A stretch of 50,004 bases of DNA from Chloroflexota bacterium (GTDB taxonomy: Bacteria > Chloroflexota > Limnocylindria > Limnocylindrales > CSP1-4): NCBI GenBank assembly GCA_003171255.1, contig PMYK01000026.1, positions 15,895 through 65,898 of the forward strand, read 5' to 3'. The number at the start of each line of letters is the position of its first letter. The first letter of the stretch is position 1. The notes beneath the pieces were generated by a model that had not been told where the DNA came from, searched no databases, and saw nothing but the letters and a program-made list of their open reading frames with translations. Made by a program: the position numbers and the translations under genes. Of the stretch, positions 1 to 33,379 are shown one piece after another.

Positions 1-455
<455 letters not shown>

Positions 456-459
<4 letters not shown>

Positions 460-1619
460 CTCAGGAACCTCTCGACGGTTCCGCAACGGTGAGCGGCGTC
501 GGTACTCCCGGCGCCGCCCCAGCCGGGGCCGAAAGCTCCGCCAGCATCAAGTCGGGCAAGCCCGAGGCTGCCGGACCGACCAAGAAGTTCGAGGCGCCCC
601 ATCGCCTGGAGAGGGAGACCTTCTTCACTCATCTGGCGGGCGTGGTAGCGGTGAGCTTCTGGAAGACATCGTCATGGATCGTCGGCCACCTCCCGGCCGG
701 GCCGGTCTACAAGCTCGGAAGCTGGTTCTCGCTGGTCGGCTACGGCGCCAGCCCAATGCGCCGTCACTGGCTGCGCGCCAACTTTGGGCACGTCCTGGGC
801 GTATCGCCCAACGACAAGGCCGCCCACAGACTGGCCAGATCGGCATACCTCAACTATTCCCGGTACATCCTGGAGCTGATGCGGTTGCCATGGATGAAGC
901 GCGAGAAGGTGGATCAGCTTCTCGAGGTCCACAGCCTCGACAAGTTCCTCGAAATCTACCGCGCGTCGAAGGGCCTCGTCCTGGTGGCCGCCCATCTCGG
1001 CAACAACGAGGCGGCGGCGGCAGGCTTCGCCAAGCAAGGGCTGCTCATCAACGTCGTCGGCGACGACAGCTCCTACCCGGAACTGTACGAACTGTTCGAG
1101 CGCCAGCGTGAGAGCTGGGGCGTCAAGATGATCTCCTGGCGCAACCTGCGAGGCGTCTTCGGCGCGCTCCGACGCCACGAAGGTCTGGTACTGCTGGTCG
1201 ATTGGGGCTATCGAGAGGACGGCATCCCGGTGAAGATGTTCGGCTCGTGGACGACGCTGCCCGCCGGTCCGGCGATCCTCGCGGCCAAGCACGGCTCGGC
1301 GATCGTGCCGTTCTCGATCAACCGACTGCCCAACGGAACCTTCCGGGCGGCTTCCGACGAGCCGATCTACGTGCCGTCGAATTCCCCGGCCGACCTCGCG
1401 ATCGCGACACAGAAGATCGCCACCGCCCTGGAGGGCCACATTTCGCCGGCGCCCGAGCAGTGGTACATCTTCAAGCCGATCTGGCCGGCGACGGCCGCGG
1501 AAGAGGCCCAGCTGGAAGCCCGGAACCGTGCGGCGATGGCGAACGACGCCAGGGGCGCGGCCCCGAACGGCGAGTCGGCCCCGAACGGCGACGCGTCGCC
1601 CAGCCTCCGGGAGCGATGA
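456..1619 (+). CDS. LpxL/HtrB-family lipid acyltransferase (first copy)
   Basis: 387-residue membrane-associated acyltransferase of the lysophospholipid acyltransferase-like group that includes LpxL and actinobacterial PatA. These transfer a fatty acyl chain from acyl-CoA or acyl-ACP to a glycolipid. The catalytic HX4E motif is seen as [10 protein letters not shown] around residue 177. Further family features are a hydrophobic stretch near residues 60-85, the segment [17 protein letters not shown] before the acceptor region, and [11 protein letters not shown] near the end. The first 45 residues are a polar, Ala/Gly-rich tail. The GTG start overlaps the inositol synthase stop by four bases and the end overlaps the next gene likewise. 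Context suggests acylation of an inositol mannolipid; the exact acceptor is inferred. Confidence 0.85.
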
Positions 1620-2650
1620 CCGGCCGCGCGTCGCCCGAAGCGAGCGGGGCCGCCGCGTCACGGCGCGGATCCGCCGCGCGTCGGCGCGGGCTTCGACGCC
1701 GGCTCACCGACAATTTGACCGCGCTCCTCGCCATCGGCGCCCTGAAGCTCGTCCTCCACATGCCCGATCGACCGATCTGGGCGCTGACCGATCTCGCGGG
1801 CAGCATCTCGTACCGCACCTCGCGCACCCGACGCGACCGCGCCCGCCGGAATCTCCGGCGCGTCGTCGAGTGGATGGCGGCCACCGGCCAGGGAGCCGAG
1901 TCGTACCGCGCTGCCGCAACGGATCCGAAGGCTCTCGAGGCCCTGGTCAGGTCCGCCTTCAAGAACCACGCCGCCTACAGCGTGGAGCTGGCTCGGGCGC
2001 CGAGGTTCACCGAGAGCTGGGTCAACGAACGACTCGATGTCGAGAACCCAGAAGAGGTCGAGGCGTGGCTGACGCCCGGCCGGGCGTTGATCCTCATCGG
2101 CATGCACTTCGGGGCGATCGAGGTGCCGGGCATCTTCGCCATCCATCACCTGGGCAAGATCGTGAGCCCGATGGAGACCGTCGCCAACGCCCGCATCCAG
2201 CGCTACATCTTCTCGACGCGGGACACCATCGGCATCCGCATCGTGACTCTCGAGGAGGCGGGCGTGGAGTTGCTGGCCGCCCTTCGGCGAAACGAGGCGG
2301 TCGGGCTCGTGGCGGACCGCGACCTCACCGGACGTGGCATCGAGGTCGAGCTGTTCGGGGCCCCGATGAAGATCCCGGCAGGGCCGATCCTGCTGGGCGT
2401 CGAGACCGGCGCGCCGATGTACATGTCGGCCGTGCGGCGGGTCGGCCCGGGCCGCTATCGTGGCGGCGTGCGCCAGCTTGCAACGCCGGTGGGATCGACT
2501 CGGCGGGAGCGCAGTCGGGATCTGGCCCGCCAGGAAGCTCGGCTATTCGAACAATTCATCATGGAAGCACCTGAGCAGTGGCTCGCTCTGTTCCACCCGA
2601 TCTGGCCTGATCTGGAGCAGCCGGCAATGCACGACGGAGACAAATCGTGA
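1616..2650 (+). CDS. LpxL/PatA-family lipid acyltransferase (second copy)
   Basis: 344-residue paralogue of the preceding gene. The HX4E active site reads GMHFGAIEVPG near residue 164. The stretch RRNEAVGLVADRDLTGRGIE corresponds to the conserved region after it, and EQWLALFHPIWP closes the domain. The frame stays open far upstream inside the previous gene, but the ATG at 1616 overlaps the upstream stop (ATGA), as at every other junction here, so it is the preferred start. The N-terminus is Arg/Ala-rich before a hydrophobic segment. Mycobacterial PatA adds a chain to the mannose of phosphatidylinositol mannoside. With PimA-like and inositol synthase neighbours, one of these two copies is a good PatA candidate, though the split of labour is unknown. 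Confidence 0.85.
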   Translation: MTGRASPEASGAAASRRGSAARRRGLRRRLTDNLTALLAIGALKLVLHMPDRPIWALTDLAGSISYRTSRTRRDRARRNLRRVVEWMAATGQGAESYRAAATDPKALEALVRSAFKNHAAYSVELARAPRFTESWVNERLDVENPEEVEAWLTPGRALILIGMHFGAIEVPGIFAIHHLGKIVSPMETVANARIQRYIFSTRDTIGIRIVTLEEAGVELLAALRRNEAVGLVADRDLTGRGIEVELFGAPMKIPAGPILLGVETGAPMYMSAVRRVGPGRYRGGVRQLATPVGSTRRERSRDLARQEARLFEQFIMEAPEQWLALFHPIWPDLEQPAMHDGDKS

Positions 2651-3540
2651 CCTCTGGTGAAACCTCGAGGCTGGGCCAGGCCGACATGCACATCCATTCG
2701 ATCGCCTCGGATGGAACGGCGTCGGCGGCCGAGATCCTCGACTATGTGGAGCGCTGCCTCGATCTGGACGTGATCGCCATCGCCGACCACGAGCGGATCG
2801 AAGGCGCCGTGGAGTGCCAGCGTCTTGCACGCGAGCGCGGCAGCCGGGTGGATGTAGTCGTGGGCGAGGAGGTTACGACCCGGAGCGGTCACCTGCTGGG
2901 CCTCTTTCTCCAGGCCCGCCTCAAGCGGAACCAGCGCGTCGAGACCACCGTGGCCGAGATTCACGAGCAGGGCGGCCTGGCCATCGTGCCCCACCCCTTC
3001 TCCGCTTTCACGCTCGGCATGCGCAAGCACGCCATCATGCGCGTCCACCTGTCGACCGATCGGCTGGTCTACTGGGACGCCCTTGAGGGCTACAACCCAT
3101 CTACCGCCGGTCGATTCGGGCGCGCCGCGACCATACGCCTGGGGGCCGAGCTCGGCCTGCCGATCGTCGGCAACAGCGACAGCCACACCCTCGACACGGT
3201 CGGCGACGGCCGAACGTACTTCCCGGGCTCCTCGGCGGAGGGCTACCGGCGCGCCCTGCTCGACCGAACCACCAGCGGCAGCTGCGCGGACTGGGGCTTG
3301 GTCCGCGAGACGTTCATCTATGGCCGCCAGGTCCGCAAGCAGGTCCGTGACGTGGCTCGCTGGGGCAGGCGCAACCTGCTGAAGGACGATGCGCCCCGCG
3401 ACCTGGGCGTGCCCAGAGAACAGCTCGTTCTGCAGCGACAGGCCGAGTCGGAATACTTCTCCTGTAGGGGCGGCGCTCGGCCAATTGGCGACCTGGCGGA
3501 GCGGGCCGACCGGCGCGAGTTCGAGGAGCCGTCTGCGTGA
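2647..3540 (+). CDS. PHP-domain metal-dependent phosphoesterase
   Basis: 297-residue protein of the polymerase and histidinol phosphatase (PHP) superfamily. Metal ligands are visible in DMHIHSIASDGTASAAEIL (residues 15-33), AIADHERIEG, VVVGEEVTT, the central HPFSAF and the late NSDSHTLDT. This arrangement fits a stand-alone PHP phosphoesterase such as the YciV/RNase AM group or inositol/sugar phosphatases. The last 60 residues are basic and helical. It lies between an acyltransferase and a mannosyltransferase with four-base overlaps at both ends, so it is probably co-translated with lipid genes. A tempting but unproven role is dephosphorylating a phosphoinositol intermediate, since an inositol monophosphatase is not visible here. 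Confidence 0.85.
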   Translation: MTSGETSRLGQADMHIHSIASDGTASAAEILDYVERCLDLDVIAIADHERIEGAVECQRLARERGSRVDVVVGEEVTTRSGHLLGLFLQARLKRNQRVETTVAEIHEQGGLAIVPHPFSAFTLGMRKHAIMRVHLSTDRLVYWDALEGYNPSTAGRFGRAATIRLGAELGLPIVGNSDSHTLDTVGDGRTYFPGSSAEGYRRALLDRTTSGSCADWGLVRETFIYGRQVRKQVRDVARWGRRNLLKDDAPRDLGVPREQLVLQRQAESEYFSCRGGARPIGDLAERADRREFEEPSA

Positions 3541-4727
3541 AGATCGGCCTCGTCACTCCCTACGTCTACCCGCTTCCGGGGGGCGTGAACGAGCACGTCC
3601 GCTTCCTGTATGAGAACCTCCGGCTGCGTGGACACGACGTCCGCATCATCACCAGCAGCCACGGCCTGCAGCGCTCTTCCGAGGGCGACGTTATCCGGAT
3701 CGGGAAGGGCTTCAGCGTCCCGAGCAACGGCTCGGTCGGGACGATCACCCTCTCGCCGCGCTACCTGTCGCAGGTCCAGAAGGTCCTCGATCGCGAGCGG
3801 TTCGACCTGCTCCACTTCCACGAGCCGTTCGTGCCGTTCCTATCGCTCGTGATGCTGCGCCAGTCGACGAGCGTGAACATCGCTACGTTCCACGCATACG
3901 CCGGCTTTTCGCCGGCGATGGAACTCGGCAGCAAGACGCTCCAGGGCTATGCCAGGCGACTCCACGGCCGGATAGCAGTCAGTGCCGCGGCGCGCCACTT
4001 CGTCGATCGCTTCTTCCCCGGCGACTACAAGGTCATCCCCAACGGGGTCGACGTCGGCCGATACCAGCGCGCGGTTCCGGTGGCCCGCTGGCAGGATGGC
4101 TGCCCCAACGTCCTCTTCGTCGGGCGCCTGGAAGATCGCAAGGGTCTGCCGCACCTGCTCAAGGCCTTCCGCCTGCTTCGAAAGGGCGGCGTCGAATGCC
4201 GGCTCCTGGTCGTGGGCTCCGGACCTCAGGAGCGCGAGGCGCGGCGCTACGTCATGACCCGGGGATTGCAGCAAGTGGAATTCCTCGGCCGCGTGAGCGA
4301 CGCGGAGAAGGCTCAGCTCTTCCGCACAGCGGATGTCTTCGTCTCGCCCGCCACCGGTCGCGAGTCGTTCGGAATCGTCCTGCTGGAGGCGATGGCCGCC
4401 GGTGCCCCGATCGTTTGCAGCGATATCCACGGCTACAAGGGTGTGGCCCAGCGCGGCCGCCAGGCAATCCTGGTGCCGCCGCGGGACGCCAAGGCTCTGG
4501 CCGCGGGTATCGAGGAGCTCCTCGCCGACCCGGACCTCCGGGCTCAAATGGGCGCCGCGGGGCAGGAGCGGGCGGCCCAGTTCAGCTGGGAGCAGGTCAC
4601 CGCCAGGGTCGAGGACTACTACGGCTTCGTGATCCGCCGGCTCGCGGCCCAGGGCCAGCTACCGACGGGTTTCCGCGCCGAGGTGCCGCCCGCCCCGCAC
4701 CCCGCCCTGGTCGAGCGCAGGGGCTGA
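3537..4727 (+). CDS. pimA: PimA-like GT4 glycosyltransferase
   Basis: 396-residue GT-B fold enzyme of family GT4. The N-terminal motif PYVYPLPGGVNEHVRFL matches the acceptor-side loop of PimA-type phosphatidylinositol mannosyltransferases. The middle has the C-terminal Rossmann start NVLFVGRLEDRKGLPHLL, and the nucleotide-sugar EX7E motif is GRESFGIVLLEAMAAG (residues about 277-292). PimA moves mannose from GDP-mannose to phosphatidyl-inositol on the inner face of the membrane. It is the last gene of the five-gene overlapping operon beginning with inositol synthase. The GTG start overlaps the PHP gene stop. GT4 membership is secure; the PimA assignment rests on motif likeness plus operon context. 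Confidence 0.82.
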   Translation: MKIGLVTPYVYPLPGGVNEHVRFLYENLRLRGHDVRIITSSHGLQRSSEGDVIRIGKGFSVPSNGSVGTITLSPRYLSQVQKVLDRERFDLLHFHEPFVPFLSLVMLRQSTSVNIATFHAYAGFSPAMELGSKTLQGYARRLHGRIAVSAAARHFVDRFFPGDYKVIPNGVDVGRYQRAVPVARWQDGCPNVLFVGRLEDRKGLPHLLKAFRLLRKGGVECRLLVVGSGPQEREARRYVMTRGLQQVEFLGRVSDAEKAQLFRTADVFVSPATGRESFGIVLLEAMAAGAPIVCSDIHGYKGVAQRGRQAILVPPRDAKALAAGIEELLADPDLRAQMGAAGQERAAQFSWEQVTARVEDYYGFVIRRLAAQGQLPTGFRAEVPPAPHPALVERRG

Positions 4728-4758: not shown

Positions 4759-4775
4759 CAGCCGGTGGCCGGCTC
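4759..4775. terminator. Hairpin between convergent operon ends
   Basis: An inverted repeat agccgg-tgg-ccggct lies in the 46-base gap between the PimA-like gene and the giant glycosyltransferase gene, which converge here. It just touches the latter's stop codon. No clear T-run follows on either strand, so this is only a weak candidate for a shared terminator. Confidence 0.3.
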
Positions 4776-7700
4776 AGAGTATCGGCTTGTCCTTGCGCGA
4801 CGGCCTCGGTGGGACCGGATCGCCCGACGAACCGGCCGACTCCGGCCCTGGGACTGCGGCCACAACCGTGGCCGGCGGGATCTCGGTCGCGCCGGAAAGC
4901 AGCTTCGCCCTGCGGAAACCGATGACTATGCGTCGCTCCCAGGCGGCCCACGCGACGAGCCCCGCCACCAGCAGAGCGAGCATGGTCAGTGCAAGCGGCC
5001 ATGTTCCGATCACCTTGACCGAGGAGGCGGCCTGGAGATTATCCGAGAACTGGAAGCCGTAGAACCAGGTCGGCATGACGCCGTCATAGATGCCCAGGAT
5101 CGCGTTGGGCATGGGCAGAGCCGACAGGTCCGGATAGAGCGCCACGAAGGCGACGATGCCGAAGATGCAGACCCCCAGCACGAACCGGCGGGGGTTGCGG
5201 GCCGTCAGACAAACCACGGCCAGCAGGACGCCCACCAGTAGCATCGCGATCGAGATCAGAGATGGCGGCAGCGGAGCGCGGAACAGGCTGTCACGGGGCC
5301 CGTACTGTCCGAGCCACCACAGCAACACACCTGCCAGCACGACGGGCACGAGCAGCTGGATGACCCAATACCGATCCTCGAGGCCGGCGTTCTGCCGGCG
5401 CTCGAGACGCCACAGGAGCATCGCCAGCGCGGCCAGTGCGAGTACGAGAACGATGCCGATCAGCAGGATCCGCGTCTCGATGTTCACGTCGCCTGTCCCC
5501 GAGCCGCAGATCGTGTTCCCGAAGTAGTCGGTGGTGCTTACACGAGCCAACCCGCACAGCGGATCTTTGAGAAGCCAGATGGCAGCCGGGAACAGCAGCG
5601 CCGCCGCTCCGGCGACCCGGGCGAGCAACCACGTCCGGCGGGACGGTCCGTGCCAAAGCTCGGCCATGAAGTAGGCGAGGGCTAACAGGAAGAACGGTAA
5701 GGCCGTGTAGAAGTGGTACTGGAACGCGGCCCGGTCGATGCGGGACCAGGACAGCCATTGCCAGAAGAAGGCTACGGCGATCAGGGTCAGACCAAGGCTT
5801 CGCCGCTTGAAGGCCTGCCAGCAGATGAAGACCATGGCGACTATCGCCAGCCACCACAGAGCTGGATTGCCGCCGTCGTGGATCCATGAACCGGTGTCAC
5901 TGCCGTAGCCGACGCTCTCGAACCAGACGGGCTTCAGGTCCATTGGCCAGGCCCACCACGGCGACGATGCCGCGTGCGTGGCTCGCAGGTCGTTGTGGTA
6001 GTTGTACATCTGGATGGTCAGATCCCAGAGCGTCTGACCGGTATGCCCAGGCGCTGGCCAGGAATCGTCGCAGCGGCCTTGGGTCGTGTCGAAGTGCCAG
6101 CAGGCGATTGTCGGCAGGGCGCCCGTGGCGTCCGTCTGCGTTTGCCAGGGCATGTCCCAGGGAAGATAGAAGGCGACGTAGATCACGATCGGAAGCAGGA
6201 GCACGCAGGCCGTCATCCATGCGGCGTGGAGGCCGAAGCCCGTGCCCAGACGCAGCCATCCCTCCGGGGCCGGCGATGGCGGGCCGGCGAACCTGGCCGG
6301 GTCGTTGGGTCCGGGCGGCGCGGCCAATGGCCCGAAGCCGAGCGTGCCACCGAACCAGAAAGCGCCTGCGGCCAGAGCGCCGAGGGCCATTCCGCCCAAC
6401 CCGACCTCGATCAGTAGACCGCTGCCCCGCAAGGCGCCGACGAGGCCGGCAAGCGCGCCGACGACGAGCGGCGCCCCGATCGCGAACTGGAATTCCTCGC
6501 GTGTCCAGGCAATCGGGTGATAGGCATTGACGGCGGCCGAGATGGCCGTGGCCGCCAGCATCAGGATGAAGAAGGTGTAGTTCGGAGCCCCGTTGTCCAT
6601 CGTGCCCGGCGACATCGCCAGGCCCGCGCCGAACAGCCCTGCCGCGACTACGGCCGTCACGACACCGATGAAGACCTTGTCGGGTGTGGTTCGTGTCGCC
6701 ATGGCCCAGACAAAGCCGCCCACCACGACGGCAAGGGCGAGCCCAATCAGCAGCAGCACCCCCGCCGGGTTGCCGGTGTTTGGCTCAGTGGTCATCTCGG
6801 CTATGGCCATCCAACCCAGGACGCCGGTGCCGGCAGCCAGACCGAGAATCGTGACCAACCTACCAAGGGCCGACCGCAGGAGGATCAGGATGCCGATGCT
6901 GGCCATGGCATAGACGGCGACCCACTTCGAGGCGAGGGCCAGGCCGAGAACCACGCCGAGGACCGGCATGCCGAGCCAGAAGGCAGCCCGGCTCTTCCAC
7001 ACCTTGAGCCATAGGACGGCGAAGATCAGGTAGGCCAGTAACAGGAACCCACCGACATAGGTGTCGTTCATGGCGATGCGCGATTGGGCGAAGAACATCC
7101 CGTCGGCCAGCGTGAAGAGGGCGACCAGGAGGCCGATCGACCGGCGGCGGAACAGGATCCGGGCCAGGAGATACAGGCAGGCCGCCATCAAGGCGCCGAA
7201 GAGAACTCCGACGATGCGCCAGGAGAAGGCGAACTGACCGACGTCCACGGTGGCCATCGAGCCGGTCGAGGAGAGCGCCATGATCTGCTCGCGGTCGACG
7301 TCCTGCATCGTTGCGGCCGAGTCGAGACCGATGGCAACCGGCTCGAAGGGCAGCCTGGCGTCGGAAAACACCGCGTCACCGTTGGATTCGATTGCGTATA
7401 CCGTCCAGCCCGTACCATCGGGCGTGCGCCCGAGGGCCTGAAAGAGCCTGGTCGCCCGGTCGAACACGACCTTAGTGATGGTGCCCGGCATCTTGTCGAG
7501 GGTCTGGTTGCCGTACCTCACGACGGACCAGGGGGTGGTCGAGGCATCGATCCTGATCAGGAGGATGGATTTGCCCGCGGCAACGTACGAATTCTGGTCG
7601 CCGCGGACGCCCGAACCCGTGAAGTCCGAATAGTTGATTGCAATCGAGGTCGCAGGTTCGTCCGTGGGCAGGGTCGAGGTGACCACCAGGTGGCGCAGGT

Positions 7701-10700
7701 CCAGGGTCCCGAGGCCGCTCGCGTAGGCCACCAGCGCCTGCGGGTCGGAGGTCACGATCTGGAGGTCGGGCAAGTCGCCCTGCGCGATCAAACCCTGGAT
7801 AGAGGTGACCTGGTCGGAGCTGATGGCCCCAACATCGACGGCCTGAGGCAGACCGGCCGTAGATGCGGCGTCGAGGGCGGCCTGGGCCGCGCTGGCGTCG
7901 ATGCCCATGGCAGAGGCGAGCGCCTGAGCCTCGGCCGGGGCCGATGGGGACGTTGTCGGCGTCGTCGGCGTCGTGGTGGGCGTCGTGGTCGATGGATTCC
8001 TGATCAGGGCCGCACCGCCGGTTCCCAGATCGGAGAAGTCCGCCGCTCCTGGGACCAGACCGCGAGCCACGATGGTTCCCCCGCCCTGGCTCAGGTCGAT
8101 CGAGACGATGTTGCCCGTGCCGTCGACGGCCAGGATGAAGGGCGGCGACCCGGTGTACAGGCGGGCAATCGACAGGCCGGCGTCGACATCCATCTCGACA
8201 GGCTGCAACGGCGCGGTCAGGAGGCCGTTCTGGACCTGGTCGAGTGAGTTCGTGTCGATCCGGTATATCCGGCCGCTCGAGGTCCCAACGTAGACCAGCC
8301 CGGTTGGACCCACCTCCGAGAAGGCCGAGGCGCCCGGAATCGAATACGTATGGACGAGACCGCGAGTCTGAAGATCGTAGACGCGAACCTCGGACCCGGT
8401 CGCTGTGAAGAGGCGGTCGCCGTACCGATTGCTCTCGCTGGCCGCATCGGGGTTGTTCGGATCGGCCACCGGCGACGTTGCCGTCCGGGGCTGGACCAGG
8501 GCGTCCTTGACGGTGGCGTCGAGCTCGCCAGTAGCCGTGACCTTGTCGTCGGAGAACAACGTGATCCCGCCGGCGATGGCGTACTTGGCCAGGTGTGGAT
8601 GGGTCCACTCATAGATGTCGTGCGGGATGTTGTAGCGCCAGTCTTGCAGGAACTCGGTCGCGGTCCGGGCGTGGTAGACCTCGTCGAAGTACATCTGCAT
8701 CGGCTCGTCCAAGCGGTACACCCGGATCGACAGGACGGCGATCACGAGCGCCACCACAACCCAGATGTCCTGCCGGGTCAGGCGACCGTGCGGCTCGGAG
8801 TCGAGCGCGGCGGATCTGTCGGGTTGGGTCGAGGGGCGAGCCAGTCGGTGCCACAGTGCCATCACCCAGGCCGGCACGTACCTGGGTCGATCCGCTTCCT
8901 GCCTGTCCTCGGGCCCGTCGGCCCAGCAGTCGTCCCCCTCGGCGAAGTCGCGGTCGTGCCCGCCGCCCGGTCGATCGATCTGGCCCTCGTCGGTGAAGTC
9001 TACGGACTGGGCGGCCGAAACACCCACGGCCGAGGCGGAAAGTACATCGAGATCGTCCGACTCGAGATAGCCATCGGCGGGACCGGCCTCGGCCGCATAG
9101 CCATCGAGAGGCCCGATCATGTACCACCAGCCGCCCGACTCAGGCTCCGACGCGGCCGTCGCGACCTCGCGTTCGAGCGCAGCGACCGCGCGACCACGGA
9201 GCTGCAGGAGCGCCCAGACCATGGCCAGGCCGGTTGTCACGCTGCACAAAGCCACGGGCCAGATGATCCCGTCGAACCACTGGGCGGTCATTATTCCGTG
9301 ACCCCAGTCGTTCAGCGTCCCGGCGAGGGTTCCGTCGCCGGCGGGGATGCCGTTGTACTCGACCAGCACCGCCAGCAGGTTGACCGTGTTGACCACGGCC
9401 AGGATCACGTAGGTCACGCTCCAGCGCCATGAGACCGCAAGCAGGACTGCGCCGAGCCCGAAGAACGGGAACAGGTAGCGCTCGTGGGCCCGGGTTGGGA
9501 CCACGAAGAACGCGATCGCCAGAATGGTCAGGGCCACCAGCAGCGACTGCGCGTCGTCACGCCACGCGGCCCAGACGCTGACCAAGATGAGAACCGTCAG
9601 GAGCAGGCTGTCGCCGAGGACTGCCGCGTAGATGTGCTGGCCTGAGATGCCGAGCAGCCCGACGGCGGCGGCGACGACGGCCCCGACCACGAACGTGCCC
9701 CACAGGCCGCTGAACTCGGCCCTCAGCCACCCGGCGATGCCCGGACCCGCGCTCGCATCGTCCGGATCGACGTCCGTCGCCTCGAGGGGGCTCGCCTCGC
9801 CATGGCTCGACAGCCGGGCGGCGGCGGCCGCCAACAGGAGGAGCGCGGCCGCGATCAGGGCGATGACGATGACGGTCGCGGGAACCGACCCGATGAGATG
9901 GCCCACGCCGCTCTGCCCGGAACTGGCGTCGGTCCAGGGCGAGTCGTGGAGCACCCACCACTGAAGGTCTCGGTCGAGCGCGTTGCCATGTTCATTCGTC
10001 AGCAGGGCCCAGGGGTTGTAGGCGTTCAGCGTCAGGAACGGGTACTCGCCGAACGAGCCGAGCAGGTGGCTGACGATCGAGTCGAAGACCATGCCCGCAG
10101 AGACCACCACTGCGCCGAGGCCCAGCAGGACCGACGTCAATGTCCGCGCGCCCGCCACGGCGAGCGGCAGATACCGTCGCGCAAGCGAGAAGACCCCGAG
10201 GCCGGCTACCAACCCCACCGCTAGCGTGGCGAACCCGGGCGCCGAGGCGACGCGACCGGCGGCCCCGAGAAGGTCGAGGCCGGTGAACGGTATGCAGATC
10301 AGAGCGGCGGTGACCAGACCCGCGCCGAGCGAGCTCAGGATCCGTTCCGGATCGGGCTCGCCGGTCTTTGGCGCAAGCGATCGACGCAGGATGACGAACC
10401 CCACGACGAATCCCAGTATCCCAAGCTGGAGCTTCGTGAGCACGGCGAGGACTGCGAGGGCCGAGGCCGATTCGCGATGGTCCTTCTGGAGCTCGCGCAG
10501 ACCCAGCAGCAGGAAGATCGAGCCGACGGCGTCGGCCTGCCCCCAGATGGCGCTGTTGAACCAGGTTATGGGGTTGACGAGAATGATCAGCGCGGCGATG
10601 AATGCCCGCCGGCTGTTGACGCCAAGCTCGACGGCGAGGAGCCAGACCGTGGCAGCAAGACCCAGGTCGGCGAATATCGGAATCAGCTTCACGCCCTCGC

Positions 10701-11025
10701 CGATGTTGCCTCCGGTCAGGAAACTGACCACGCCAAGCAGCAGCATGTAGACGGGGGGGTAGTCGATGAAGCCGGTCCGATCGTAGAAGCCGATCGAGCC
10801 GTGCTGGGCGATGTCATTGGCCCAGTACTGGAACGAAGACAGGTCGGTCGGGAAGCCAGACCCAGGCAACAGAACGTATGCGATGATGAGGCGGAGGATC
10901 AGACCCAGGGCCAGGAGTACGACGATGGCGGGAATCCCTGTGACGGCACCACTCGTGACGGCACTGCTCGATTCAGCCGGCGCGGGCCCCTGTGGGCTGT
11001 CCTCTCGCGAGCTCGGTCCTGCCAC
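4774..11025 (-). CDS. Giant fused GT-C / protein O-mannosyltransferase
   Basis: 2083-residue polytopic membrane protein made of two glycosyltransferase halves. Residues 1-640 are a GT-C unit with many membrane spans and the loop motif TDLSSFQYWANDIAQ followed by DYPPVYMLLLG. A polar acidic linker (640-740) follows. Residues 745-2083 resemble a PMT/GT39 enzyme: FDEVYHARTATEFLQDW near 778 supplies the acidic pair, and WTHPHLAKYAIAGG resembles the HPPLGK region. Between these and the next span (about 820-1258) sits an inserted, mostly beta, Thr/Ser-rich domain with propeller-like repeats (VYDLQTRGLVHTYS, VYVGTSSGRIYRID). Such enzymes use polyprenyl-phosphate sugars outside the cell. The GTG start has AGGAGG nine bases upstream. 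The fold assignments are by motif reading; substrate is unknown. Confidence 0.8.
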   Translation of the reverse strand: MAGPSSREDSPQGPAPAESSSAVTSGAVTGIPAIVVLLALGLILRLIIAYVLLPGSGFPTDLSSFQYWANDIAQHGSIGFYDRTGFIDYPPVYMLLLGVVSFLTGGNIGEGVKLIPIFADLGLAATVWLLAVELGVNSRRAFIAALIILVNPITWFNSAIWGQADAVGSIFLLLGLRELQKDHRESASALAVLAVLTKLQLGILGFVVGFVILRRSLAPKTGEPDPERILSSLGAGLVTAALICIPFTGLDLLGAAGRVASAPGFATLAVGLVAGLGVFSLARRYLPLAVAGARTLTSVLLGLGAVVVSAGMVFDSIVSHLLGSFGEYPFLTLNAYNPWALLTNEHGNALDRDLQWWVLHDSPWTDASSGQSGVGHLIGSVPATVIVIALIAAALLLLAAAAARLSSHGEASPLEATDVDPDDASAGPGIAGWLRAEFSGLWGTFVVGAVVAAAVGLLGISGQHIYAAVLGDSLLLTVLILVSVWAAWRDDAQSLLVALTILAIAFFVVPTRAHERYLFPFFGLGAVLLAVSWRWSVTYVILAVVNTVNLLAVLVEYNGIPAGDGTLAGTLNDWGHGIMTAQWFDGIIWPVALCSVTTGLAMVWALLQLRGRAVAALEREVATAASEPESGGWWYMIGPLDGYAAEAGPADGYLESDDLDVLSASAVGVSAAQSVDFTDEGQIDRPGGGHDRDFAEGDDCWADGPEDRQEADRPRYVPAWVMALWHRLARPSTQPDRSAALDSEPHGRLTRQDIWVVVALVIAVLSIRVYRLDEPMQMYFDEVYHARTATEFLQDWRYNIPHDIYEWTHPHLAKYAIAGGITLFSDDKVTATGELDATVKDALVQPRTATSPVADPNNPDAASESNRYGDRLFTATGSEVRVYDLQTRGLVHTYSIPGASAFSEVGPTGLVYVGTSSGRIYRIDTNSLDQVQNGLLTAPLQPVEMDVDAGLSIARLYTGSPPFILAVDGTGNIVSIDLSQGGGTIVARGLVPGAADFSDLGTGGAALIRNPSTTTPTTTPTTPTTSPSAPAEAQALASAMGIDASAAQAALDAASTAGLPQAVDVGAISSDQVTSIQGLIAQGDLPDLQIVTSDPQALVAYASGLGTLDLRHLVVTSTLPTDEPATSIAINYSDFTGSGVRGDQNSYVAAGKSILLIRIDASTTPWSVVRYGNQTLDKMPGTITKVVFDRATRLFQALGRTPDGTGWTVYAIESNGDAVFSDARLPFEPVAIGLDSAATMQDVDREQIMALSSTGSMATVDVGQFAFSWRIVGVLFGALMAACLYLLARILFRRRSIGLLVALFTLADGMFFAQSRIAMNDTYVGGFLLLAYLIFAVLWLKVWKSRAAFWLGMPVLGVVLGLALASKWVAVYAMASIGILILLRSALGRLVTILGLAAGTGVLGWMAIAEMTTEPNTGNPAGVLLLIGLALAVVVGGFVWAMATRTTPDKVFIGVVTAVVAAGLFGAGLAMSPGTMDNGAPNYTFFILMLAATAISAAVNAYHPIAWTREEFQFAIGAPLVVGALAGLVGALRGSGLLIEVGLGGMALGALAAGAFWFGGTLGFGPLAAPPGPNDPARFAGPPSPAPEGWLRLGTGFGLHAAWMTACVLLLPIVIYVAFYLPWDMPWQTQTDATGALPTIACWHFDTTQGRCDDSWPAPGHTGQTLWDLTIQMYNYHNDLRATHAASSPWWAWPMDLKPVWFESVGYGSDTGSWIHDGGNPALWWLAIVAMVFICWQAFKRRSLGLTLIAVAFFWQWLSWSRIDRAAFQYHFYTALPFFLLALAYFMAELWHGPSRRTWLLARVAGAAALLFPAAIWLLKDPLCGLARVSTTDYFGNTICGSGTGDVNIETRILLIGIVLVLALAALAMLLWRLERRQNAGLEDRYWVIQLLVPVVLAGVLLWWLGQYGPRDSLFRAPLPPSLISIAMLLVGVLLAVVCLTARNPRRFVLGVCIFGIVAFVALYPDLSALPMPNAILGIYDGVMPTWFYGFQFSDNLQAASSVKVIGTWPLALTMLALLVAGLVAWAAWERRIVIGFRRAKLLSGATEIPPATVVAAVPGPESAGSSGDPVPPRPSRKDKPIL

Positions 11026-11054
11026 CCGTTACGGCCTCCTGGGCGAGCGCTGAG

Positions 11055-12890
11055 GTGGAGCGGAGTATAACCCAGGCTGCCGGCGGCGACGGCACGCCGG
11101 GCCTGAAAGCGGAAGATCCGCCCGGCGCGGAGTCATTGTCGGAGCAGGCCACCGACCCGCTAGATCTGGCGAGCCTGCGACATATGTGGTGGGGCATCGG
11201 ACTCGTCGTCCTATGCCTGGTCGCTTATTACGTCAGCCAGCCGAACGGCAACAACCTGTACCTGCACTTCGTTCTTCAGGCACAGGCCTGGCTCGACGGC
11301 CACACCGCCATTCCGATGCCCCAGTACCAGGACGTGATGCCGACCTACAACTCGGCCGGTCAGGCGACGGGCTACGGCATCATTCCCTTCCCGCCTCTCC
11401 CGGCGTGGGTGCTGCTGCCCTTCGTCTCGATCTGGCACCTCGCCACCAACCAGCATCTGCTGGCCACGATCTTCGCCGCCATCGACGTAGGCATCGCGTA
11501 CTGGATGCTGGGCCACCTGCCGGTGCGTCACAGCATTCGCCTGCTCACCTCGCTCTTCCTCGGGCTCGGCACCGTCCTGTGGTACACGGCGGCCATCGGC
11601 TCGACCTGGTTCTGGGCCCACATCGTGGCCGTCGGCTGTCTCCTCCTGTCCGTCGGCCTGGCCCTCGCCGCCGATGGCGACGCCGCCGAACCTCGACCGC
11701 TCAGGAGCGTCGCCACGGCCGTGCGCCGGTACAGCTGGCCCGGCGGCTGGTCGTCCGTGGGCTTGCTGGTCGCCCTCGGCGCGATCGGCGAGATGCTCTT
11801 CGTTCTGGCGGGTGCCGGCACGTCGGCCGCGGCGCTCGCCGCGGTAGGGATCCTGCTGTGCGTGCTCGCCGTCGCGCTTGCGGTCGTCGTCGCCGGGCGG
11901 CCCGGGGTCCTCGTGCCCTTTGTCGTGGCGGTCGCGATCGTCGGCGGCTTGCCGGTTGTCCTGCTCGCAGGCGCTCAGTCGCAGGCCACGATCGTGGTCA
12001 TCGATGCCGTCCTGGTCGTGCTGATAGTCGGTCTGTGGTGGCTGAGCGGTCGCGAGGGCGGACGCGCCGACAGAGCGCTGACATCGCTCTCGGCCGCCGT
12101 GTCCAGCCCCGAAGCGCTGCAGGTGGCCGCCGGGATCATGTTCGGGCTGGCGGTCACCGCACGACTCACGATCCTGTTGGGCTTCCCGTTCCTGATCCTC
12201 GTCGGCGGTGGTGGCACGTGGTTGCGGCGAGCGATGCTGGCCGGGGCCGGCGCGGCCGTGCCCCTCGTGACTCTGCTGGTCGTCACCTACGCCACCAGCG
12301 GCCACCTCTTCAACCCGGCCTACGACTACCTCTACCACGTGGAGCTCGGCGAGTACGGCGGTGTCCTCAACTACAACCCGGCCTGGTCGATCACGGACAT
12401 CCGCTACATCCCCCAGAACCTGGGGATCATGCTGTTCGGGATGCCGCGGATCCTGCCCAACTTCGCGAGCGTCTACCCGGGCGACGGCGGCACGCCGCTG
12501 TGCGTGGCCAGCTCCACCCGTGGCCTCTTCGACGCCGGCTGCCCGCTGGCGATCCCCGAGGCGACGGGCACGAGCCTCATTCTGTCGAGCCCGGCCTTCC
12601 TGCTTGCGCCACTCGCCTGGCGGCCGATACGGCGGCTGAGCATCGACCGGGCGACCGCCGGCGCTACCATCGCCGTGGTGGCCATCGCCACCGCGAATCT
12701 CATGCACTTCAGCCAGGGCTGGGTCCAGTTCGGCTACCGTTTCAGCAACGACTTCGTTCCGTTCGCGCTGATCCTGGTTGCCCTCGGCGCCAGCCGGCTG
12801 GGCCGCCTGTGGCCCGTGGTCCTGCTCGTGGCCGCGTCCATCGCGATCAACTTCTGGGGAACTACGTGGGGAGTGATGCTTGGCTGGTGA
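11055..12890 (+). CDS. Polytopic membrane protein, GT-C glycosyltransferase-like
   Basis: About 611 residues with roughly a dozen hydrophobic spans. The first span (WGIGLVVLCLVAYYVS) is followed by a large outer loop, NLYLHFVLQAQAWLDGHTAI and later FPPLPAWVLLP. This is the layout of GT-C glycosyltransferases, which carry an acidic/aromatic loop after the first span. No single named family could be assigned. The start is uncertain: GTG at 10992 would overlap the divergent gene, GTG at 11055 is chosen, and ATG at 11184 just before the first span is possible. The end overlaps the next gene by 11 bases. With the following GT117 and GT2 genes it forms a three-gene outer-face glycosylation operon. 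Function is inferred from context. Confidence 0.65.
   Translation: MERSITQAAGGDGTPGLKAEDPPGAESLSEQATDPLDLASLRHMWWGIGLVVLCLVAYYVSQPNGNNLYLHFVLQAQAWLDGHTAIPMPQYQDVMPTYNSAGQATGYGIIPFPPLPAWVLLPFVSIWHLATNQHLLATIFAAIDVGIAYWMLGHLPVRHSIRLLTSLFLGLGTVLWYTAAIGSTWFWAHIVAVGCLLLSVGLALAADGDAAEPRPLRSVATAVRRYSWPGGWSSVGLLVALGAIGEMLFVLAGAGTSAAALAAVGILLCVLAVALAVVVAGRPGVLVPFVVAVAIVGGLPVVLLAGAQSQATIVVIDAVLVVLIVGLWWLSGREGGRADRALTSLSAAVSSPEALQVAAGIMFGLAVTARLTILLGFPFLILVGGGGTWLRRAMLAGAGAAVPLVTLLVVTYATSGHLFNPAYDYLYHVELGEYGGVLNYNPAWSITDIRYIPQNLGIMLFGMPRILPNFASVYPGDGGTPLCVASSTRGLFDAGCPLAIPEATGTSLILSSPAFLLAPLAWRPIRRLSIDRATAGATIAVVAIATANLMHFSQGWVQFGYRFSNDFVPFALILVALGASRLGRLWPVVLLVAASIAINFWGTTWGVMLGW
11064..11069 (-). promoter_or_regulatory. 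-10 element (TATACT) for the giant glycosyltransferase gene
   Basis: TATACT on the minus strand, preceded by GGGT, lies about 40 bases before the GTG at 11025, with AGGAGG between. No good -35 hexamer is seen. It sits inside the 5' part of the divergent plus-strand gene if that gene starts at 11055. Confidence 0.4.
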
Positions 12891-14640
12891 ACGATTGAGC
12901 AGGCTCCGACAGGTGCCGGCACGGCTCATGGGGCGTCTCACCGATCCTGCCACTCTTCGGGCATTGGCCGCGCCGGCGGTAGCGGCCGGGCTGACGCTCG
13001 CGTTCGTCATCCCGACCCTCGCTCCGGGTGTGGCGAGCTGGGACACGGCCGAGTTCCAGACCGTCGGTCCGGTCCTGGGGACGGCCCACCCCACCGGCTA
13101 TCCGAGCTACGTGATCCTGGGCTGGCTGGCCTCGATCGTGCTCCAGCCATTCGGCGATCCGGCCTTCCGGATGAACCTGCTGCAGGCCATCCTGGCGGCG
13201 CTGGCGGTGGCGGGGACCGTTGGCATAGTGCAGGTGCTGACGGGCCGGCGCCTGATCGCCCTGGCCACCGGCATGATGCTGGCCTGCAGCCAGCTCTTCT
13301 GGCGGCTCTCTACCCACGCCGACCCTCACATGTTCCACGTCGCCCTGGTGGCGGTCCTCTTCGTCGTTCTGCTGACGTGGGATATCCGACGCCACAGCGA
13401 CGACCCCGACACAGTGATGCACGCCGACCGCTGGCTGGTCGTGGCGGCGTTCGTCTTTGCGGTCGCAATCGCCAACCACTCTCTGGCGCTGCTGCTGCCG
13501 CCCGCGATCGGGCTCTTCGTCCTGGCTGCGGACTGGCGGGTCATCCTCCGCCCTCGGACGATCGTGGCTTGCGTCGCCGTCTTGATCGCAGCGACCGTCG
13601 CCCTGTTCGCCGAGTTGCCCATTCGGGCGGCCATGAACGCCCCGCTCGTGTATGGGCATCCGGACACGTGGAGCGGATTCCAGTATGTGGTCCTGGCCGA
13701 GCAGTTCCGGGGCAGCCTGTCGGATCCGTTCGGCGACCTGCCGACCAAGATGGTTCAGGTCAGGGATCTCCTGGCCGGCTGGCTCGGTCCTCTTGGCTTG
13801 CTGGCCGCGGTGGGCCTCGGCACGAGCATCGTGCGGCGCCCACGCTACCTCATCCTGGGCGGGCTCTCGGCCCTGGCGACATGCGTCTTCGCGGCCTCGT
13901 ATGCCAACGCAGACATCGAGCGCTACTACCTCGTGCCGCTGCTCGTGGCCTTCACGTTGATCGGCCTTGGGGCCGCCGACATCGTCGCACTGGCCGGCTG
14001 GATTGCCTCGGAACTGGTGGGGTCGCTGACCACACGGGCGACGGCGACGGCGACGGCGACGGCCGATGCACTGACCGAACCTGCTGGCCCGGATGCAGCG
14101 GACTCCGAGATGGCTGCGGACTCGACTCGGGCGTCCGGCGCGGGCGGCTGGGTCGGCTGGTTTGTCCTGGTCGGCGAGTTGCTAGTCGCCGCGGCGATCC
14201 TGGTCTCGACGGTCAGTGTGGTGCCGGCGCGTCAGCTCCCCCAGGGTGGCGACAACCCGGGCGGCGTGAGCGAGGTGAACAACACCTGGGACTCGGTCTG
14301 GTTGCAGGCAGTCCTGGCTCCGGCCGATCACGGCGGCCTGCCCAAGGACTCGGTGATCGTGAGCTGGTGGAGCACCTCCACGACACTCTGGTATGGCCAG
14401 AAGGTGCTCGGACTCCGGCCCGACATATACATCGTGGACGATCGGACTCGCCTGGACGACAACCTGGGTGACGTTCAGGATGTATTCAATCGGTTCCTGG
14501 GTAATAGGCCGGTCTTCACGATACGGCTGGACGGCGGCGTCGACGGAATGGTCGCGCTGGGTCAGGAGTTCGACATGCAGACGTACGTTCTCGGGAACGG
14601 CGTCACCATAAGCCAGGTTCTAGGTCGAAAGGGAAGCTAG
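12880..14640 (+). CDS. GT117 (DUF2723) family membrane glycosyltransferase
   Basis: 586-residue membrane protein. The signature SWDTAEFQTVGPVLGTAHPT followed by GYPSYVILG, close after the first membrane span (residues about 48-75), is the hallmark of the DUF2723/GT117 family. Members of that family O-mannosylate proteins in Bacteroidetes and related bacteria. About ten spans follow, then a soluble C-terminal domain from about residue 460. A short simple Ala-Thr run (encoded by repeated acggcg near 14040) lies in the loop before the last span. The start is TTG at 12880, overlapping the previous stop, with GGGGAG six bases upstream. It probably uses a polyprenyl-phosphate sugar made by the downstream GT2 enzyme. 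Confidence 0.82.
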   Translation: MAGERLSRLRQVPARLMGRLTDPATLRALAAPAVAAGLTLAFVIPTLAPGVASWDTAEFQTVGPVLGTAHPTGYPSYVILGWLASIVLQPFGDPAFRMNLLQAILAALAVAGTVGIVQVLTGRRLIALATGMMLACSQLFWRLSTHADPHMFHVALVAVLFVVLLTWDIRRHSDDPDTVMHADRWLVVAAFVFAVAIANHSLALLLPPAIGLFVLAADWRVILRPRTIVACVAVLIAATVALFAELPIRAAMNAPLVYGHPDTWSGFQYVVLAEQFRGSLSDPFGDLPTKMVQVRDLLAGWLGPLGLLAAVGLGTSIVRRPRYLILGGLSALATCVFAASYANADIERYYLVPLLVAFTLIGLGAADIVALAGWIASELVGSLTTRATATATATADALTEPAGPDAADSEMAADSTRASGAGGWVGWFVLVGELLVAAAILVSTVSVVPARQLPQGGDNPGGVSEVNNTWDSVWLQAVLAPADHGGLPKDSVIVSWWSTSTTLWYGQKVLGLRPDIYIVDDRTRLDDNLGDVQDVFNRFLGNRPVFTIRLDGGVDGMVALGQEFDMQTYVLGNGVTISQVLGRKGS

Positions 14641-15443
14641 TGAGCGCAGGCGCAAGTCCGATCAGCACAAGCGGGGCGTCGGGATCGACCGCCAGGCGCG
14701 TCAAGGAACTCTCCTTCTTCTTTCCTGCCCACAACGAAGAGGCCAATCTCGAGGCCCTGGTCGACGAAGCTCTGGGCGCCCTGCCGGCGCTGGCCGAGAA
14801 GTTCGAGATCATCGCCGTCGACGACGGCTCGCGCGACCGAACGCCGGCCATCGCGGACGCCCTTGCGGCCAAGCATCCCGCTGAGTTCCGGGTCGTCCAC
14901 CACCCGGTCAACCTGGGCTACGGAGCAGCCCTACGGTCGGGGTTCCAGGCCGCCCAATTCGACCTGGTCGCCTTCATCGATGGCGACCGCCAGTTCAAGG
15001 TGGCCGACGTGGGCCGGCTGACCGAGCGGCTTGCTGCGGCCGACGCCCCGGACGTGGTCCTCGGCTATCGACTCAAGCGAGCCGACCCGCTGATCCGGCG
15101 CTGGTACGCGCGCGTCTACCGCCTCTCGAACCGCATCTTCTTCGGGGTTCGGGTCCGCGACATCGACTGCGCCTGCAAGCTGTTCAAGCGTGAAGCACTG
15201 ACGTCCATCCACGTCTCCTCGGGCGGCGCCTTCTTCACAGCCGAGCTGCTGATCAAGCTCCGCTTCGAAGGCCGCAAGCTTGCCGAGGTCGGCGTGCCGC
15301 ACTATCCGAGAACCGCCGGATCACCCACCGGGGCCAAACCAAAGGTGGTATTCCGGGCCGTCCGCGATTTCTGGGCGCTCCGGTTCCGGCTCTGGTTCAG
15401 GCGCAATGGGGCAATGGAGCTGGGCGAGCCGATCCTTGGTTAG
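14640..15443 (+). CDS. DPM1-like GT2 polyprenyl-phosphate sugar synthase
   Basis: 267-residue GT-A fold enzyme of family GT2. The N-terminal core has FFFPAHNEEANLEALVDEAL, the nucleotide-binding IIAVDDGSRDRTP, NLGYGAALRSGF and the metal-site FIDGDRQF. This series is typical of dolichyl/polyprenyl-phosphate mannose synthases (DPM1) and close relatives such as ArnC-like enzymes. There is no C-terminal membrane pair, so it would act as a peripheral protein on the inner face. The GTG start overlaps the upstream TAG by one base. The operon context supplies two GT-C type users of the lipid-linked sugar, and the opposite strand two more. The sugar is likely mannose but this is inferred. Confidence 0.85.
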   Translation: MSAGASPISTSGASGSTARRVKELSFFFPAHNEEANLEALVDEALGALPALAEKFEIIAVDDGSRDRTPAIADALAAKHPAEFRVVHHPVNLGYGAALRSGFQAAQFDLVAFIDGDRQFKVADVGRLTERLAAADAPDVVLGYRLKRADPLIRRWYARVYRLSNRIFFGVRVRDIDCACKLFKREALTSIHVSSGGAFFTAELLIKLRFEGRKLAEVGVPHYPRTAGSPTGAKPKVVFRAVRDFWALRFRLWFRRNGAMELGEPILG

Positions 15444-33146: not shown

Positions 33147-33379
33147 TTGTTCCCTTGTACCACATCGGTTGGCGCACCGTTGGCGAGACGGCGCTACGGT
33201 ACCGAGAACGGCGAGGAAGATCGGAGCCGGCGAGGACCGCTGGAGAACGGTAAGCCGTCCAAGCTCGGCAGCGGCATGGCGCATGGCATCGTGTCAAAGC
33301 CACAATCGTCGCCACCAGCGCCCAAACCGAACGGCGGCCACATGATCCAGACAGCCGTCGCCTTGCCGACGCCCGCTCG

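What the first reader, a model, noticed from the sequence alone, without database searches (positions are those of the whole stretch)
4774..11025. Two glycosyltransferases fused in a 2083-residue protein with a propeller-like insert
An N-terminal GT-C unit and a C-terminal PMT-like unit occur in a single chain. A beta-rich domain of about 435 residues is inserted between the acidic DE loop region and the next membrane spans. Bacterial PMT enzymes are usually about 500 residues. The fusion may couple two sequential mannose transfers, with the insert acting as a protein-binding platform.
Basis: partly seen in the sequence, partly recalled or inferred. Interest (0 to 1): 0.7.

Follow-up and report, generated by a model that had tools for sequence, protein, structure and literature searches.

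The report
Double sugar-transferase fused around a propeller
One giant bacterial membrane protein joins two sugar-transferring enzymes in a single chain and carries a seven-bladed propeller domain at the mouth of one of them; a whole class of uncultured Chloroflexota has kept this arrangement, which suggests they decorate secreted proteins or envelope molecules with sugar chains in a coupled way not described before as far as I could find.

Summary
Window 4774-11025 (-) is one 2083-aa ORF with three parts. (1) Residues 1-625 are a GT-C unit; its model is nearest to GPI mannosyltransferase I, PIG-U and ALG6. (2) The C-terminal part is a protein O-mannosyltransferase (PMT, GT39) unit with all four catalytic positions known from MtPMT. 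[quoted passage not shown] It is not an assembly join: 56 of 73 named relatives have both halves in one ORF, and most breaks are contig ends. Every class member examined carries the fusion (one on two contigs), in a conserved locus next to inositol-phosphate synthase, PimA, lipid acyltransferases, a polyprenyl-phosphate-sugar synthase and two more GT-Cs. Outside the class (Limnocylindria, Chloroflexota) PMTs are separate and have a few-residue loop instead of the insert. N-unit catalytic-type residues are identical in 58 of 58 members. Best reading: a bifunctional, outward-facing glycosyltransferase that starts an O-linked mannose (PMT) and adds the next sugar (N-unit), with the propeller as acceptor dock. 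The fusion and insert are established; the reactions and their coupling are inferred. A new variant of a known kind.

The parts
4774..11025 (-). Whole fusion gene, 2083 aa
   Evidence: conserved as one ORF in 56 of 73 named relatives
9151..11025 (-). N-terminal GT-C unit, residues 1-625 (GT87/ALG6/PIG-M-like); putative catalytic Asp61 in the first external loop
   Evidence: AF2 pLDDT 90.2, pTM 0.91; Foldseek top hits GPI-MT-I 9wno, AglB 7e9s, PIG-U 8imx, ALG6 6snh; Pfam GT87 in 25/48, Alg6_Alg8 in 21/48 relatives; D61, D120, Q163, D165, D361, R512, H514, E515 identical in 58/58
8782..9150 (-). Acidic, poorly conserved linker, residues 626-748, presumably cytoplasmic
   Evidence: alignment A1; topology inferred from the N-in topology of MtPMT (PMC12331936)
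8548..8781 (-). PMT TM1 and first external loop, residues 749-826, with DE motif D781-E782 and YEWTHPHLAK
   Evidence: invariant D781, E782, H809, P810, K814; aligned to stand-alone PMT L200
7240..8547 (-). Seven-bladed WD40-like beta-propeller insert, residues 827-1262
   Evidence: AF2 pLDDT 90.8, pTM 0.89; 1428 PDB matches at E<=0.001, listed best ones WD40/G-beta-like propellers; sequence profile vs 1l0q 4.2e-08; exact borders
7771..7944 (-). Small helical piece nested in one propeller blade, residues about 1028-1085; weakly like the dimer/linker region of class B penicillin-binding proteins
   Evidence: helices in the model; profile A5 vs 4ovd 4.8e-06, 4ye5 1.3e-03
4777..7239 (-). Rest of the PMT unit, residues 1263-2083 (TM2 to C-terminus), with D1321, R1765, F1768 and the HAASSPWWAWPMDLKPVWF block
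   Evidence: PF02366 and PF16192; profile vs POMT 9i5k 1.7e-04 and ScPMT1 6p25 2.4e-04; D1321 and R1765 in 68/68, F/Y1768 in 68/68
34..459 (+). C-terminal part of inositol-3-phosphate synthase-like gene (locus context)
   Evidence: NCBIfam TIGR03450 1.8e-40, below cut-off
456..2650 (+). Two PIM/lipid-A-type acyltransferases (456-1619 and 1202-2650; overlapping ORF calls, the second start is probably downstream)
   Evidence: PF03279 1e-33 each; best NCBIfam PIM acyltransferase
3537..4727 (+). PimA-like GT4 (phosphatidylinositol mannosyltransferase)
   Evidence: phmmer vs PDB PimA 4n9w 7.6e-61, 2gej 8.8e-61
10992..12890 (+). Divergently transcribed GT-C-like protein (start possibly downstream), related to the third unit of the L053 triple fusion
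   Evidence: present in 61 of 71 scanned loci
12880..14640 (+). TMEM260-like GT-C
   Evidence: PF11028 6e-25
14640..15443 (+). GT2, polyprenyl-phosphate-sugar synthase-like: candidate donor supply
   Evidence: phmmer vs ArnC 8vxh 7.3e-15, dolichol-P-mannose synthase 5mlz 2.5e-12

Best explanation
The protein is a bifunctional, outward-facing, polyprenyl-phosphate-sugar-dependent glycosyltransferase. The GT39/PMT unit transfers a first sugar, most likely mannose, to Ser/Thr of proteins crossing the membrane. The N-terminal GT87/ALG6/PIG-M-like unit uses the same kind of donor to add the next sugar to that product. The seven-bladed propeller sits on the outer face directly after the catalytic loop of the PMT and holds or orders the acceptor, so that initiation and extension happen on one captured substrate. 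The neighbouring GT2 supplies the lipid-linked donor. Shown here: architecture, folds, insertion point, conservation, residue identity, locus, and a tree consistent with a single origin. Inferred: activity of both units, mannose as the sugar, shared acceptor, role of the propeller.
For: PMT: two Pfam models above cut-off; MtPMT's four essential residues D74, D176, R441, Y444 (PMC12331936) correspond to D781, D1321, R1765, F1768 (F as in ScPMT1), the last three kept in 68/68 rows including insert-free PMTs (F or Y at 1768). N-unit: a GT-C by fold; GT87 and Alg6_Alg8 hits in about half of its relatives; the first-loop Asp, which PIG-U has lost (SSW) and active Gpi14 and ALG6 keep (PMC12653191), is present in 58/58. 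In actinobacteria GT87 PimE extends PMT-made mannose from the same donor (PMC12757957). Propeller. Coupling: the two halves have travelled together since the base of the class (tree, 97 SH-aLRT; pairwise distances r = 0.90); locus conserved.
Against: No experiment exists. The window's own N-unit has no Pfam hit, and its Foldseek E-values are only 2e-3 to 1e-2, so its sugar and acceptor class are open. The genome has 15 other GT87-like places that could do the extension. PMT-only paralogues with the propeller exist in the genus, so the PMT unit can probably work without the N-unit. The PimA/inositol-phosphate synthase locus may point to a glycolipid acceptor for the N-unit.
Confidence: 0.5

Rival explanations
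1. Two parallel enzymes sharing a donor pool: the N-unit mannosylates a phosphatidylinositol-based glycolipid (like GPI mannosyltransferase I or PimE on PIMs), while the PMT unit glycosylates proteins; the fusion only co-localises them.
For: Best fold match of the N-unit is GPI-MT-I; the gene sits in a conserved locus with inositol-phosphate synthase, acyltransferases and a PimA-like GT4.
Against: A shared donor alone would not obviously require one chain in every member; PimE itself acts on both PIMs and mannoproteins (own knowledge and PMC12757957), so a lipid role would not exclude the coupled one.
Confidence: 0.25
2. The whole protein extends an envelope polysaccharide or lipoglycan rather than proteins; the PMT unit has been re-purposed.
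For: Two further GT-Cs and a GT2 lie in the same locus; one relative fuses a third GT-C to the chain.
Against: The C-terminal PMT_4TMC block and the Rx2F and HxxSPWW-type motifs of PMTs are retained.
Confidence: 0.15
3. The N-unit is a non-catalytic scaffold, as PIG-U is in GPI transamidase.
For: PIG-U is among the best fold matches and a Pfam hit in 7/48.
Against: First-loop Asp and a dozen other polar residues are identical in 58/58; PIG-U has lost the motif (PMC12653191).
Confidence: 0.07
4. Assembly or binning chimera of two genes.
For: The window is from a fragmented draft genome (55 contigs).
Against: 56 independent named contigs from many sites carry the same single ORF in the same locus; single clade in the tree.
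Confidence: 0.01

Closest known systems
Bacterial PMT, e.g. MtPMT/Rv1002c (GT39)
   Same: DE motif, second catalytic Asp, Rx2F/Y motif, PMT and PMT_4TMC Pfam models
   Different: The known bacterial enzyme is a single unit without a soluble insert (PMC12331936); this one is fused to another GT-C and has a propeller in external loop 1
Eukaryotic Pmt/POMT with MIR domain
   Same: PMT core plus a large soluble beta domain on the outer face
   Different: MIR is a beta-trefoil in loop 4 (PMC12331936); here a beta-propeller in loop 1
PimE / GT87 mannosyltransferases
   Same: Pfam GT87 hits in half of the N-unit relatives; PimE extends PMT-initiated mannose from the same donor (PMC12757957)
   Different: PimE is a separate protein; the window's own N-unit does not score with the GT87 model
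GPI mannosyltransferase I (Gpi14/PIG-M), PIG-U and ALG6
   Same: Among the best fold matches of the N-unit
   Different: Eukaryotic ER proteins; Gpi14 and ALG6 act on lipid acceptors; no fusion, 10-12% identity

Membership tests
GT39 / protein O-mannosyltransferase | Pfam PMT (PF02366) and PMT_4TMC (PF16192) above curated cut-offs | tested here: met
   36.6 vs 22.7 bits and 33.2 vs 32.4 bits
GT39 / protein O-mannosyltransferase | Catalytic D (DE) in loop 1, D in loop 2, Rx2(Y/F) in loop 5 | tested here: met
   D781-E782, D1321, R1765-F1768 (residues from PMC12331936)
GT39 / protein O-mannosyltransferase | Curated equivalog model of bacterial PMT (NF058602) | tested here: not met
   23.6 bits vs cut-off 800; the 530-position model describes the classical single-unit enzyme. 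I therefore file it as a divergent GT39 member, not as the equivalog
GT39 / protein O-mannosyltransferase | Transfers mannose from polyprenyl-P-Man to Ser/Thr | not testable with these tools
   needs an assay
GT87 (PimE family) | Pfam GT87 (PF09594) above cut-off | tested here: inconclusive
   25 of 48 N-unit relatives match at E<=0.1 (best 1.1e-06), the window protein does not; in its own genome the model rings at 15 other places
GT-C superfamily (N-unit) | GT-C fold with an acidic catalytic residue in the first outer loop | tested here: met
   D61 in 58/58
WD40/YVTN-type beta-propeller (insert) | Closed multi-bladed four-stranded propeller fold | tested here: met
   about 31 strands, consistent with seven blades
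MIR domain | Beta-trefoil in loop 4 | tested here: not met
   the insert is a propeller in loop 1

The most novel reading that the evidence does not exclude
A single-chain O-glycan synthase: initiation (PMT), chain extension (fused GT-C) and acceptor capture (propeller) in one polypeptide, a class-wide invention of Limnocylindria, and in one paralogue extended further by a third GT-C.
Probability: 0.35. Interest if true: 0.75.

Novelty: new variant of a known kind. Interest (0 to 1): 0.6.

Why it matters
Bacterial protein O-mannosylation is described as a small stand-alone PMT plus separate extending enzymes. A class-wide fusion of initiator and a second transferase, with a large outer domain at a different place from the eukaryotic MIR domain, is a natural experiment on how PMTs select acceptors and how initiation is coupled to extension. 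It makes both questions testable by point mutations in one protein. It also flags a PIM/mannosylation locus in Chloroflexota, a phylum for which I found no paper on such glycosylation.

Tried and rejected
Assembly chimera: rejected. One continuous GT-C fold: rejected (two full sets of motifs; separate confident N-unit model). Long N-terminal extensions in L051, L090, L094, L099 and L121: where read (L051, L094, L121) these are Arg/Gln/Glu/His-rich in-frame upstream sequence overlapping the divergent gene on the other strand, not a domain. Splits in G002/L073, L078, L114 and L127: frames break at different places, so read as sequencing errors or local decay, not a common split form. MIR identity for the insert: no hit. 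phmmer of the whole protein against PDB gave only a chance hit to Tob1; profiles were needed. PHROGs: nothing. Literature searches for this architecture returned nothing that describes it; only open-licence papers were searched. My first homologue filter let in antisense ORFs; it was corrected before any alignment was used.

Full report
OBSERVATION. Pfam finds PMT (PF02366) and PMT_4TMC (PF16192) in the C-terminal part, both above their cut-offs; before residue 1260 only a weak sub-threshold propeller-type hit (SSL_N, E 0.095) appears.

NOT AN ARTEFACT. The window lies in a 2.56-Mb, 55-contig draft genome. Whole-genome searches found the same fused frame in sister species, in the family, in a second family with about 1.1-Mb genomes, and in three further families of the class. 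A scan of one genome for each of 84,980 bacterial and archaeal species gave 73 named loci, all Chloroflexota, two titled Limnocylindrales and one CSP1-4, the reference lineage of this group. Of these 73, 56 carry both halves in one ORF, 11 are cut by contig ends, 4 are split by overlapping frames at different positions and 2 are PMT-only paralogues.

PARTS. (a) N-unit, residues 1-625. AF2 with 48 relatives gives pLDDT 90.2 and pTM 0.91. Foldseek against PDB puts GPI mannosyltransferase I (9wno), AglB, PIG-U and ALG6 first with probability 1.00, but E-values are 2e-3 to 1e-2, so the fold is clear and the closest family is not. Among relatives 25/48 match Pfam GT87 and 21/48 Alg6_Alg8. D61 in the first outer loop and D120, Q163, D165, K198, D361, R512, H514, E515 and R516 are identical in 58/58 fused proteins. 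Active Gpi14 and ALG6 use a first-loop Asp as base; the non-catalytic PIG-U has lost it (PMC12653191).

(b) PMT unit, residues 749-826 and 1263-2083. Profile search hits POMT and ScPMT1. MtPMT needs D74, D176, R441 and Y444 (PMC12331936); the equivalents are D781, D1321, R1765 and F1768. D1321 and R1765 are identical in 68/68 rows, and position 1768 is F or Y in 68/68.

(c) Insert, residues 827-1262. BLASTP against an insert-free PMT from elsewhere in the phylum (L200) gives pieces that abut in L200 at residues 133/134 and leave exactly 436 window residues between them; other insert-free PMTs also pass directly from the loop into the FGWR start of TM2. The insert model has pLDDT 90.8 and pTM 0.89, with 1428 PDB matches at E <= 0.001; the listed best ones are mostly WD40-type seven-bladed propellers such as G-beta and beta'-COP. 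The sequence profile alone reaches a surface-layer propeller (1l0q, 4e-8). In the model the first and last strands could close one blade, as would suit insertion into a loop (inference).

EVOLUTION. In 151 genomes across the phylum, all 18 class members have the N-unit and the PMT; 17 have them in one frame (some cut by contig ends) and one, G161, on two contigs. The insert is present wherever its stretch was read. Outside the class PMTs are 419-755-aa frames; those read lack the insert, and N-unit relatives lie at other places. In a tree of the PMT part all fused forms are one side of a branch (97); PMT-only paralogues sit inside the genus and so probably lost the N-unit. N-unit and PMT-unit distances correlate at r = 0.90 (Mantel p 0.001), as expected for long joint inheritance.

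CONTEXT. The order inositol-phosphate synthase, two acyltransferases, PHP, PimA-like GT4 | fusion | GT-C, TMEM260-like GT-C, GT2, bifunctional nuclease is conserved in most of 71 scanned loci. GT4 matches PimA structures at 8e-61; GT2 matches ArnC and dolichol-P-mannose synthase.

MECHANISM. Both units face outward and use lipid-phosphate sugars if they behave as their families do (established for the families, inferred here). PMT starts O-mannose; in actinobacteria GT87 PimE then extends it from the same donor (PMC12757957, PMC12331936). Joining such a pair in one chain, with a propeller placed just after the catalytic loop, is most simply read as coupled initiation and extension on a docked acceptor. 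The PIM-type neighbourhood keeps a parallel lipid role for the N-unit alive.

LIMITS. No coordinates were available for analysis, so the position of the propeller over the active site is inferred from sequence. The full-length protein could not be modelled. Absence outside Chloroflexota was not tested exhaustively: the named scan kept only the 80 best of 367 relatives. The literature library holds only open-licence papers.

Noticed in passing
L053:1733-9559 (-), genome G024 contig 7: 2608-aa ORF: the same N-unit, propeller and PMT followed by about 1000 further residues of GT-C type, related to the window's neighbour at 10992-12890 (27% identity, 4.6e-13): a possible triple fusion.
   Followed up: partly
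G000 contig 43 (L035:5789-9133 +); also L065, L075: Paralogues with PMT and propeller but no N-unit; short membrane N-terminus instead.
   Followed up: partly
L069, inside 10449-12077 (+): A LysM-like, potentially peptidoglycan-binding stretch lies inside the propeller insert of this relative (sequence; one LysM hit among members), fitting an outside location.
   Followed up: partly
7771-7944: Helical piece nested in the propeller, weakly like the dimer/linker region of class B penicillin-binding proteins; absent from the distant class members examined.
   Followed up: partly
34-4727: Inositol-phosphate synthase, two acyltransferases, PHP and PimA-like genes: a phosphatidylinositol-mannoside-like locus in Chloroflexota.
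   Followed up: partly
20102-48030: Replication-origin-type genes dnaN, dnaA, yidC-like, and further on secA and gyrA; two VanW/PG_binding_4 proteins at 26934-29096 and 31050-33284.
   Followed up: no
own genome G000: 15 GT87-like places in a 2.56-Mb genome; only 2 of 14 well-known control genomes ring at all.
   Followed up: no
16081-18369: 762-aa conserved neighbour with weak PP2C-like hit, no Pfam family, kept beside the locus in 45 of 71 scanned loci.
   Followed up: no
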